A stretch of 64,000 nt of DNA from Phytoactinopolyspora limicola (GTDB lineage: Bacteria; Actinomycetota; Actinomycetes; Jiangellales; Jiangellaceae): contig NZ_JAAOEN010000012.1 of NCBI RefSeq assembly GCF_011320225.1, forward strand, positions 62,001-126,000. The letters are read 5' to 3'. The notes under the pieces were generated by a model, which saw nothing but the letters and a program-made list of their open reading frames with translations, was not told the DNA's origin and searched no databases. Both the position numbers and the translations under genes were made by a program. Shown piece by piece: positions 1-48,504 of this stretch (position 1 is the first letter of the stretch; every line of letters begins with the position of its first letter).

Positions 1-331
1 GTGAATGCGCGGCGATCAGATGCGTGAACGGGGTCTATCAGTGGGTTGGTGCATCTGATCGTCAACATCCTTAACGTCGATCCGCGTCGCGCGACCAAAC
101 CCCATGGCACACCCATGCCCCCCTTTTTCCAGACTGCCTAGGGGCGAGGTGGTGGACCCATCGGACGATCAGATGCACTACACGGCTTAAACGGCTTGTC
201 CGTGCATCTGATCGCCGCGCGTCCACATCTCGGGATGCGATCAGATGCACTCATCGGGCGGTCACGCGTCGTCGGCGCATCTGATTGCCCCCATGAAAAA
301 GATCAGGCGTCAAAACGGAGATCAGGTGCAC
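1..331. repeat. Dispersed hairpin element, copy A (cut by window edge)
   Basis: This 381-base stretch before the rpe stop carries no convincing gene. It holds three hairpin units whose arms are GATCAGATGC and GCATCTGATC: 14-60, 167-213 and 239-286 (last arm ends in T instead of C). They are 47, 47 and 48 nt long. The right end (about 277-331), read on the minus strand, matches the left end of copy C at 37079 and copy D at 45380. It includes GTGCACCTGATCTCCGTTTT followed by GACGCCTGATC. The 25-nt linker at 214-238 is nearly the reverse complement of the linker at 45485-45509 in copy D. The left end lies outside the window. Confidence 0.8.
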
Positions 332-6539: not shown

Positions 6540-6589
6540 TGATCATGAACACTTTGCCGTGCGATAGCGCGGCAAAGTGTTCATGATCA
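6540..6589. repeat. Perfect 20-bp inverted repeat upstream of carbamate kinase
   Basis: Arms 6540-6559 and 6570-6589 are exact reverse complements around a 10-base loop. The outer end reads TGATCATGAACAC. It lies in the 279-base gap between the divergent arcC and M48 peptidase genes, only 21 bases from the arcC start. It therefore cannot end transcription of either gene and could be a 5' UTR structure or an operator. No other gene is seen in the gap. Confidence 0.85.
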
Positions 6590-21092: not shown

Positions 21093-21397
21093 TGTCACCT
21101 GATCTCCGTTTCCGCTCCTGATCGTTTTCTGCGGAGCGATCAGATGCGCCGACGCCCGCGTCTACACCGGACACCCGCGCACTTCGTGCACCTGATCATC
21201 TCCACCATTCGGACGCCCGACGATCAGATGCATAACCCCGCGGGATTCTTCACCTTTGTCATCTGATCTTTTGCCATCCGCGTGGTGATGCCATCGTCAG
21301 AATCGATCAGACGACCAACACTCTGCGAAACACGTCGTCCGTGCACCTGATCGCTCCGCAGAAAACGATCAGGTGACAAAACGGAGATCAGGTGCAC
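21093..21397. repeat. Dispersed hairpin element, copy B, with about 48-bp terminal inverted repeats
   Basis: The 342-base gap between the nitrilase start and the coxG stop is filled by this element and holds no gene. Its ends are inverted copies: CACCTGATCTCCGTTT plus six variable bases plus a 26-base identical block (left, ending about 21143; right, 21347-21397 region). Inside are three hairpin units with arms of GATCAGATGC/GCACCTGATC type at 21138-21197 (60 nt), 21222-21268 (47 nt) and 21305-21352 (48 nt). The linker between the first two is 24 nt. There is no transposase. It resembles a non-autonomous element or a structured RNA. Confidence 0.85.
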
Positions 21398-37078: not shown

Positions 37079-37530
37079 GTGCACCTGATCTCCGTTTTGA
37101 CGCCTGATCTTTTTCGAGGGGGCGATCAGATGCGGGCGACGACGTGTTGACGGCGGGCGACGACGCGGTTGGTGCATCTGATCTCTCCTGAGCGTGGGCC
37201 TGCTGGCTCAGAATTGCGGATAGACCGCGTCTGAGGTGGCCTATCCGCAATTCTGAGCCAGCAGGCCCATGCCCCGGCAACCTCACGCATGCACCCACGC
37301 ACCGATGGCCGCCACCACAACACATGACACCAACGGGCAACCACGCCGATCGATCAGATGCACGACAACCGCTTTCAGGAGCGCATCATGCATCTGATCG
37401 CCAACCGTCCGCATCACGAGGCGAGATCAGATGCAGCAAACCCCCGCGCTGACCAGCAGCGTCGCCATCACACCTACATCTGATCGTCGCCACACAAACG
37501 ATCAGGCGCACAAACGGAGATCAGGCGCAC
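37079..37530. repeat. Dispersed hairpin element, copy C, with a nested 29-bp inverted repeat
   Basis: This element fills most of the 580-base gap between the convergent permease and def genes; no gene is visible there. The left end (GTGCACCTGATCTCCGTTTT, then GACGCCTGATC) and the inverted right end (finishing at 37530) are related terminal repeats. Hairpin units with GATCAGATGC arms are at 37124-37183 (60 nt), 37352-37399 (48 nt) and 37425-37485 (61 nt). The linker between the last two is 25 nt. Between units one and two sits an unrelated perfect inverted repeat at 37195-37269. Confidence 0.85.
37195..37269. repeat. Perfect 29-bp inverted repeat inside element C
   Basis: Arms 37195-37223 and 37241-37269 are exact reverse complements around a 17-base loop. 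The arms begin TGGGCCTGCTGGCTCAG. It sits between two convergent genes and would make a very stable hairpin in either transcript, so a two-way terminator is plausible. It is inserted between hairpin units of the repeat element and is absent from the other copies. Confidence 0.9.
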
Positions 37531-38225: not shown

Positions 38226-38279
38226 GTGATCGTTGCCGCTTTCGGGTCGCTATAGCGGCCCGAAAGCGGCAACGATCAC
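38226..38279 (-). terminator. Perfect 21-bp inverted repeat at the end of the HAD gene
   Basis: Arms 38226-38246 and 38259-38279 pair exactly around 12 bases that themselves contain the small palindrome CGCTATAGCG. The outer end reads GTGATCGTTGCC. The right arm overlaps the HAD stop codon (38276-38278). It lies 35 bases upstream of def on the same strand, so it may end SUF-HAD transcription or attenuate def. No U-tract is seen. Confidence 0.6.
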
Positions 38280-45379: not shown

Positions 45380-45556
45380 GTGCACCTGATCTCCGTTTTG
45401 ACACCTGATCGCTTTCACCGGGGTGATCAGGTGCGGGCGACGACGCGTTGTGGCAGGTGGCGGCACCGAGGTGTACATCTGATCGCGTCCCGAGATGTGG
45501 ACGCGCAATGATCAGATGCAGTATCGGCGCCTGCCAGTGCGTTGGCACATCTGATC
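45380..45556. repeat. Dispersed hairpin element, copy D
   Basis: The 734-base gap between sufR and the next gene holds no convincing gene; this element occupies part of it. The left end starts GTGCACCTGATCTCCGTTTT and continues GACACCTGATC, as in copies A and C. Hairpin units lie at 45425-45484 (60 nt) and 45510-45556 (47 nt). The 25-nt linker 45485-45509 is nearly identical to the one in copy A, and the first unit shares GCGGGCGACGACG with copy C. No right terminal repeat is seen; the sequence after 45556 instead resembles that after the first unit of copy A. Confidence 0.82.
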
Positions 45557-48444: not shown

Positions 48445-48504
48445 CCCGATGATCATTGGCACTTGACTACCGGATCCGGTAGTCAAGTGCCAATGATCAT
48501 CGGG
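48445..48504. terminator. 60-bp perfect palindrome after the ABC exporter
   Basis: Bases 48445-48474 are the exact reverse complement of 48475-48504, with no spacer; the centre is GGATCC. The outer arm begins CCCGATGATCATTGGCACTT. It starts on the base after the permease TAA and ends 20 bases before ctaA. It would fold into a very stable hairpin in RNA, or a cruciform in DNA. A terminator or attenuator before ctaA is likely; no U-tract follows. Confidence 0.7.

What the first reader, a model, noticed from the sequence alone, without database searches (positions are those of the whole stretch)
21093..21397. Modular intergenic hairpin element present in four copies
Copies end at 331 and span 21093-21397, 37079-37530 and 45380-45556. 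All share a terminal GTGCACCTGATCTCCGTTTT-like sequence and hairpins with GATCAGATGC-type arms. Unit lengths fall into two classes, 47-48 and 60-61 nt, and the usual linker is 24-25 nt. Copy B has about 48-bp terminal inverted repeats. Copies lie at gene ends and between genes in every orientation. There is no transposase. I do not recognise the family: it may be a non-autonomous element, a structured RNA or an array of protein sites.
Basis: seen in the sequence. Interest (0 to 1): 0.75.

Follow-up and report, generated by a model that had tools for sequence, protein, structure and literature searches.

The report
Palindromes partnered with a bacterial endonuclease
The odd hairpin repeat is one of several palindrome families in an actinobacterial genome; the families counted have roughly 90 copies each and also bracket, or enclose, an endonuclease gene of their own, which hints at a way for small DNA repeats to spread that I did not find described.

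Summary
The hairpin element is real, with about 90 copies in the genome (a Phytoactinopolyspora). Complete copies run 149-1472 bp, with inverted-repeat ends and regularly spaced CTGATC/GATCAG sites around a variable centre. Four same-genus genomes lack it at the orthologous places of copies C and D. "No transposase" holds for the window, but one copy elsewhere encloses a gene for an AbiEi-like protein with a DUF559 (Vsr-like) nuclease domain. In the family, 8 of 9 hairpin-rich genomes carry this gene clade and 0 of 13 others do. Other paralogs are bracketed by their own 50-60 bp palindromes. Left and right flanks of the gene match better than all 414 same-genome control intervals in 38 of 53 loci, inside and outside the family; against the stricter cross-locus control, 27 of 53. 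Two of those palindrome families have about 89 and 87 copies here, and three further window palindromes match three different paralogs. The genome has no detectable Y1 (RAYT-type) transposase. Best reading: a REP/RAYT-like system with a different kind of enzyme. The association is shown; mobilisation by the endonuclease is inferred. Ten searches of an open-access library found no description of it.

The parts
1..331 (.). Copy A, right part of a 446 bp element that starts 115 bases before window base 1 (G000:C4:61886-62331)
21093..21397 (.). Copy B, 305 bp element, arms 59 nt 88% complementary, left end degenerate
37079..37530 (.). Copy C, 452 bp element; its centre holds another palindrome (37195-37269)
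   Evidence: no element sites in the orthologous stretches of G001, G002, G003 and G004 (one single site at the edge of the G004 stretch)
45380..45556 (.). Copy D, left half only; no right end found
   Evidence: no element sites in the orthologous stretches of G001-G004
6540..6589 (.). Solo 50 bp palindrome of the family that brackets endonuclease paralog L090 (about 87 copies in the genome); it lies between divergent ORFs
   Evidence: score 45 to L090 flank, next best 11.5
38226..38279 (.). Solo palindrome related to the one beside endonuclease paralog L095; arm not found in the orthologous stretches of G001-G004
   Evidence: (score 29 to L095 flank, next best 11)
48445..48504 (.). Solo perfect 60 bp palindrome of the family that brackets endonuclease paralog L089 (about 89 copies in the genome)
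   Evidence: score 43.5 to L089 flank, next best 12.5
37195..37269 (.). Palindrome CCTGCTGGCTCAGAATTGCGGAT... inside copy C; other copies in the genome; no match to the flanks of the ten endonuclease loci of G000

Best explanation
The finding is one family within a larger set of dispersed palindromes, each tied to its own endonuclease. Each endonuclease has an AbiEi-antitoxin-like N-terminal half (a DNA-binding winged helix, inferred) and a DUF559 (Vsr-like, PD-(D/E)XK by recall) nuclease C-terminal half, and typically sits as a single gene between two copies of one palindrome. Shown: pairing of gene and palindrome, palindrome sequence that differs between gene clades, roughly 90 copies for three families in this genome, species-specific copy numbers, and absence of copies at orthologous sites. 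Inferred: the AbiEi half recognises the palindrome, the nuclease half nicks or cuts at it or at C-run/G-run targets, and repair (perhaps hairpin-primed, since no direct target repeats are seen and the flanks are copy-specific inverted repeats) leaves a new palindrome copy. The focal element is a compound version: arrays of the CTGATC dyad around a centre that can hold cargo, including the endonuclease gene itself.
For: (1) The element C7:70128-71595 encloses a 310-aa ORF, the longest inside it. Homologs lie inside or beside the same hairpins in G004, G010, G011, G013, G014, G015 and G018. (2) Matches to the hairpin pattern across 22 family genomes: 318, 115, 81, 58, 57, 29, 12, 11, 9, then 2 or fewer; reversed-pattern control 0 in all (overlapping site pairs count more than once). 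Genes of this clade (55-100% identity; cut set after seeing the data, next best 52%) occur in 8 of the 9 rich genomes and 0 of 13 others, Fisher p 2.8e-5. (3) Left and right 500-nt flanks of the gene score above 18.0, the maximum of 414 window control intervals, in 38 of 53 loci: 28 of 36 in the family, 10 of 17 outside. Outer flanks of the same loci: 0 of 53 above 18. Palindromes within 500 nt: left 32, right 28, both 20 of 53; outer boxes: 4, 2 and 0 of 53. (4) Palindrome similarity tracks protein similarity: Mantel 0.26, 0 of 2000 permutations, 37 loci; likeness is seen only among pairs of at least 60% protein identity. (5) Arms of two palindrome families occur 89+89 and 87+87 times in G000, control 0. 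(6) Three of four strong non-focal window palindromes match the flank of one paralog each, scores 29-45 against at most 12.5 for the next. (7) The pattern repeats in G001, where hits bracket C2:15146-16027, and in G002, where palindromes bracket C11:107797-108675. (8) No Y1 transposase in G000; 5 of 14 control genomes ring. (9) AbiEi: PADLOC E 8.9e-19 for L040 and 2.5e-27 for L089. DUF559: PDB 3hrl with the profile, E 8.1e-5; Pfam DUF559 above its cut-off in 1 of 10 proteins (L087), below it in 5.
Against: No movement, binding or cutting was observed. G021 has 57 hairpin matches and no clade gene at E 1e-20. 15 of 53 loci show no flank match above 18; against left/right flanks of different loci (99th percentile 26, maximum 91 because some loci share repeats) only 27 of 53 stand out. 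In the focal clade itself L148, L149 and L151 score only 12-12.5. L185 and L093 score high through repeats that are not palindromes. The clade gene lies beside sdhB or pcrA in 6 of 8 genomes, so its presence inside elements is partly one inherited locus and not many independent captures; the 22 genomes are not independent and two are under 82% complete. L040 itself has no Pfam or NCBIfam hit. One palindrome family in the window (37195-37269) has no endonuclease partner. Another, undetected recombinase could move the repeats; only PF01797 was tested.
Confidence: 0.66

Rival explanations
1. The palindromes are operators: the AbiEi-like half autoregulates its gene by binding inverted repeats, and dispersed copies are a regulon or titration sites, not mobile DNA.
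For: An AbiEi antitoxin is said to autoregulate through inverted repeats (PMC7319586, search listing with abstract start). The core of the dyad is nearly invariant. The window copy at 6540 lies between divergent ORFs.
Against: Palindromes bracket the gene on both sides. By a GC-phase estimate of neighbour orientation, few copies lie between divergent genes: focal elements 14 convergent, 7 tandem, 0 divergent, 25 unclear of 46; the two palindrome families 14 convergent, 9 tandem, 1 divergent, 16 unclear of 40. Copy number differs between sister species and copies are absent at orthologous sites.
Confidence: 0.12
2. They are ordinary non-autonomous transposable elements (MITE or REP type) moved by an undetected conventional transposase, and the endonuclease is a passenger.
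For: Inverted-repeat ends, about 90 copies, and other cargo: a CsbD gene in a G000 copy and a glyoxalase-superfamily gene in a G004 copy. G021 has the hairpins without the gene.
Against: No direct repeat of 3 or more bases next to any of 46 elements (two with approximate ends; one 2-base match) nor of 2 or more next to 40 solo palindromes. No Y1 transposase. A passenger would not explain clade-specific palindromes around many paralogs in several families of the class.
Confidence: 0.14
3. The repeats are transcription terminators or mRNA-stabilising hairpins kept by selection at gene ends; the genes are bracketed by terminators like any others.
For: Some copies begin a few bases after a stop codon (read by eye) and many lie between convergent genes.
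Against: Control intervals of the same genome show no matched flanking repeats (0 of 414 above 18); palindromes lie left and right of the endonuclease gene in 32 and 28 of 53 loci against 4 and 2 in outer boxes. No compensatory changes in the outer hairpin stem. Terminators do not amplify as one sequence in one species.
Confidence: 0.06

Closest known systems
REP sequences / BIMEs and RAYT (REP-associated tyrosine transposase) genes
   Same: Dispersed short palindromes and mosaic arrays with regular linkers, often near gene ends; one gene bracketed by the same palindromes; the enzyme gene has few or no near copies while the repeats have many.
   Different: Enzyme is AbiEi plus DUF559 nuclease, not a Y1/HUH transposase; no PF01797 protein in the genome; no GTAG or CGTC tag at the ends by inspection; the compound element has paired ends and can hold cargo.
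BOX, ERIC, Correia and similar composite or MITE-like bacterial repeats (recalled)
   Same: Modular make-up and inverted-repeat ends.
   Different: A candidate enzyme clade is identified here, inside some copies; no target site duplication seen.
AbiE type IV toxin-antitoxin (AbiEi antitoxin)
   Same: N-terminal half matches AbiEi models.
   Different: A nuclease domain follows in the same protein; neighbours of L040 are ROK and PcrA; in L089 and L090 the palindromes leave little room for a second gene.
Mobile GC clusters and double-hairpin elements of fungal mitochondria, and Vsr-like free-standing homing endonucleases (recalled, not searched)
   Same: Small palindromic DNA that spreads, thought to use endonuclease breaks.
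   Different: Bacterial chromosome, one palindrome family per endonuclease clade, different proteins.

Membership tests
REP/RAYT system | Y1 (HUH) transposase gene beside the repeats | tested here: not met
   PF01797: 0 matches in G000 (a draft of 99.45% completeness), 5 of 14 control genomes ring
REP/RAYT system | Gene bracketed by the palindrome that is dispersed in the same genome | tested here: met
   for two families; 38 of 53 loci with matched flanks
REP/RAYT system | GTAG or CGTC tag at one end of each palindrome | tested here: not met
   by inspection of focal ends and of 40 solo palindromes; tags as named in passages of PMC3733652
MITE of a DDE transposon | Terminal inverted repeats | tested here: met
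   46 complete elements with paired ends
MITE of a DDE transposon | Direct target site duplication | tested here: not met
   none of 3 bases or more in 46 elements, two of them with approximate ends; one 2-base match
MITE of a DDE transposon | Related autonomous copy with a DDE transposase | tested here: inconclusive
   the largest of 46 complete elements carries the endonuclease gene instead; about 90 copies exist and not all were read
AbiE type IV toxin-antitoxin | AbiEi-type domain | tested here: met
   PADLOC AbiEi E 8.9e-19 (L040), 2.5e-27 (L089), 4.3e-19 (L090), 9.2e-11 (L157)
AbiE type IV toxin-antitoxin | Adjacent AbiEii nucleotidyltransferase toxin gene | tested here: inconclusive
   not met for L040, whose neighbours are ROK and PcrA; in L089 and L090 palindromes lie 30-151 bases from the matched region on both sides; neighbours of the other loci not tested
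DUF559 / Vsr-like nuclease | DUF559 domain with acidic catalytic residues | tested here: met
   PDB 3hrl with the profile E 8.1e-5; Pfam DUF559 above cut-off only in L087 of 10 proteins, none in L040; invariant E208, D239, E250, H256, D265 in 24 sequences
Rfam RNA family | Match at gathering score | tested here: not met
   0 matches in the window

The most novel reading that the evidence does not exclude
Actinomycetes hold a widespread class of dispersed palindromes driven by single-copy AbiEi-DUF559 endonucleases, a RAYT/REP-like system that arose independently with a restriction-fold nuclease. It may copy palindromes into C-run/G-run sites by hairpin-primed repair and leave inverted, not direct, target repeats. 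The large CTGATC elements are its compound, cargo-carrying form.
Probability: 0.5. Interest if true: 0.93.

Novelty: categorically new. Interest (0 to 1): 0.85.

Why it matters
If true, there is a second, unrelated enzyme family behind repeated palindromes in bacteria. It would give a role to a common orphan gene group: 67 of 118 sampled class genomes match the profile at E 1e-15. It would also make the origin of GC-rich hairpin repeats in actinobacteria testable. Each enzyme comes with its own candidate substrate, so binding and cutting specificity can be tested directly. At least eleven of the elements lie within 600 bases of a contig end in this draft, so they may also be a reason such genomes assemble badly.

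Tried and rejected
Structured RNA: no Rfam hit in the window and no compensatory change in 54 distinct outer hairpins of G000. The 42-nt inner hairpin was judged on 14 sequences only, counted on both strands, which decides nothing.

RAYT as mover: no PF01797 match.

Elements in viruses or plasmids: the terminal 20-mer is in 0 viral contigs. The L089 protein has no confirmed relative in viral contigs, none in plasmids and one weak phage record (33% identity).

Named genome scan for the two-site end pattern, exact matches only: one stretch, in Phytoactinopolyspora alkaliphila.

Target duplication: none. Whether the flanking inverted C-run/G-run was there before insertion stays open. At the L090-type copy in C2 the left C-run is also in the empty site of G002 and the right G-run is not, but the right flank has diverged too far to be sure. 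Copy-specific inverted flanks: own left/right match 0.80 against 0.50 across copies at outward positions 6-9 for the L089 family, 0.60 against 0.45 for the L090 family; the excess fades beyond position 13-17.

Concerted arms: left and right arms of one element are more alike (median 0.81) than arms of different elements (0.53) in 41 elements.

Structure prediction was not tried, because its stated rule covers window proteins and loci of other tools than those that gave me the endonuclease loci.

Full report
The element. Reading the window shows four copies as described, with corrections in the observation check. The terminal motif occurs 88 + 91 times in the 6.59 Mb genome with up to two mismatches and never as the reversed control. 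I read 46 complete elements: 149 to 1472 bp, median 522. These are the ones whose two ends were both found in the loci fetched, two of them (L129, L130) with approximate ends; singles, contig-end copies and places beyond the capped list were left out. In 82 arms of the 41 elements longer than 400 bp, all have sites at offsets 0, 19 and 39; the next site is at 81-82 in 31 arms and at 91-94 in 37. The two sites at 0 and 19 are in direct orientation and the rest alternate. The same spacing is found in elements of G004, G011 and G014. The centre varies: another palindrome in copy C, a CsbD gene in L076, a glyoxalase-superfamily gene in L127 of G004, and in L040 a 310-aa ORF.

Host. The only named genome with an exact two-site end is Phytoactinopolyspora alkaliphila. 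Its contig has the same length as G004:C12, and G004 is in the genus of the window. The family is Jiangellaceae.

Mobility signs. Matches to the hairpin pattern in 22 family genomes run from 318 to 0. The orthologous stretches for copies C and D in G001-G004 hold no array of element sites; one single site lies at the edge of one stretch. For C the gap between flanking matches is 66 bases in G003 against 587 in G000. Of four more elements in one 19.6 kb stretch: the focal 149 bp copy is absent from the G001 and G004 stretches (G002 and G003 not fetched); an L089-type copy is absent in G001-G004; a second L089-type copy is absent in G001, G002 and G003 (G004 not fetched); an L090-type copy is present at the same stop codon in G001 with a different inner sequence, and not seen in G002, G003 (partly N) and G004. 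These are statements of presence and absence at diverged sites, not observed jumps.

The partner. The 310-aa protein in L040 matches an AbiEi model over residues 40-183, and its family profile matches DUF559 structure 3hrl over the C-terminal part. By itself it has no Pfam or NCBIfam hit. Its paralogs in G000 are at most 44% identical to it. Three of them (L089, L090, L094) lie between two copies of a palindrome, and the palindrome differs for each. In other family genomes the same holds for L156, L157, L160-L163, L165, L166, L172, L174 and L182, and outside the family for L183, L184, L190 and L199. Others have matched repeats that are less perfectly palindromic, or in L093 and L185 not palindromic. 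As a test free of palindrome definitions I scored left against right 500-nt flanks. 38 of 53 loci exceed the maximum of 414 control intervals taken from the window, and 0 of 53 outer flanks of the same loci do. The stricter threshold, the 99th percentile of left/right flanks of different loci, gives 27 of 53; that control itself reaches 91 because some loci share repeats. Left out before these counts were L152, L159 and L171 (fragments or contig ends), L175-L180 (repeats of loci in the set), and L181, L184, L192 and L196 (contig ends). The loci are the best matches of two capped searches, so they are not a random sample. Palindromes by a fixed score lie within 500 nt on the left in 32, on the right in 28 and on both sides in 20 of 53 loci; in boxes further out in 4, 2 and 0.

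Copies of the other families. Arms of the L089 palindrome occur 89 + 89 times in G000, 16 + 14 in G001, 1 + 3 in G004 and 0 in G002 and G003. The L090 arm occurs 87 + 87 times in G000, 1 + 2 in G002, 2 + 1 in G001 and 0 in G003 and G004 with two mismatches. G002 has at least 20 diverged L090-like places in the capped list, two of them bracketing its own endonuclease gene. Of 20 sampled copies of each family, picked from exact paired hits and so biased to intact ones, all have 50 bp cores; 17 and 7 are perfect palindromes. Outward flanks are C-runs and G-runs in all three families, a feature that ties the large element to the small palindromes.

Enzyme gene behaviour. The L040 clade gene is beside sdhB or pcrA, found by short peptide words, in 6 of 8 genomes; in G004 it is elsewhere and in G013 the contig ends. 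So the gene looks mostly vertically inherited while its repeats multiply. It is split in G014 (two pieces, one with a stop). G021 has 57 pattern matches and no clade gene at E 1e-20; these may be remnants after loss of the gene, or a gap in the draft.

Mechanism. Shown: pairing, likeness of palindromes among close proteins (Mantel 0.26, 0 of 2000), amplification, and absence of direct target repeats. Inferred: recognition by the AbiEi half, a cut by the nuclease half, and copying by repair. The within-element likeness of arms and the copy-specific inverted flanks suggest that one arm is used to rewrite the other, as in hairpin-primed synthesis or cruciform conversion, but gene conversion after insertion would look the same.

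Known relatives. RAYT/REP is the nearest analogue in organisation; passages of PMC3733652 were read. The enzyme class is different and the Y1 family is absent here. For print, ten searches were made, among them DUF559 with palindrome (2 papers, unrelated by title), DUF559 with AbiEi (0 papers) and DUF559 alone (14 papers, none about repeats by title). The library is open-access only, so absence there is weak evidence; the search on REPIN, RAYT and replicators returned 0 papers, which shows how incomplete it is.

Verdict. The element is best explained as the compound member of an endonuclease-associated palindrome system. I rate the association as strong and the mechanism as moderate.

Noticed in passing
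window 37195-37269; also G000 C12:175828, C12:312537, C37:58908, C26:36398, C3:159662: A 75 bp palindrome family (CCTGCTGGCTCAGAATTGCGGAT...) found inside some focal elements and at other places; no endonuclease partner identified.
   Followed up: partly
L047, L059 centres and L093 flanks: Repeat CAAGGAGG-TTACTG, seen in the centres of two large elements, also brackets endonuclease paralog L093 on both sides.
   Followed up: partly
L059 (G000:C23:88928-90256): 1333 bp element that looks nested, with extra internal arms of the same family.
   Followed up: no
G021: 57 hairpin pattern matches but no L040-clade gene; possible orphan repeats or assembly gap.
   Followed up: no
L206 and L278 (G001 stretches orthologous to copy C and to an L089-type copy): At both places G001 has a different inverted repeat (GTGATCG...CGATCAC type with CACAACC arms), as if the same intergenic spots attract different palindrome families.
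   Followed up: no
L153 (G009), L183, L186: Other endonuclease homologs are flanked by multi-hairpin arrays with different motifs, resembling the focal array.
   Followed up: partly
contig ends of G000 (C1, C2, C11, C12, C14, C16, C18, C19, C21, C26, C36): These contigs of the draft end within 600 bases of a focal element end, so the copy count is probably low.
   Followed up: no
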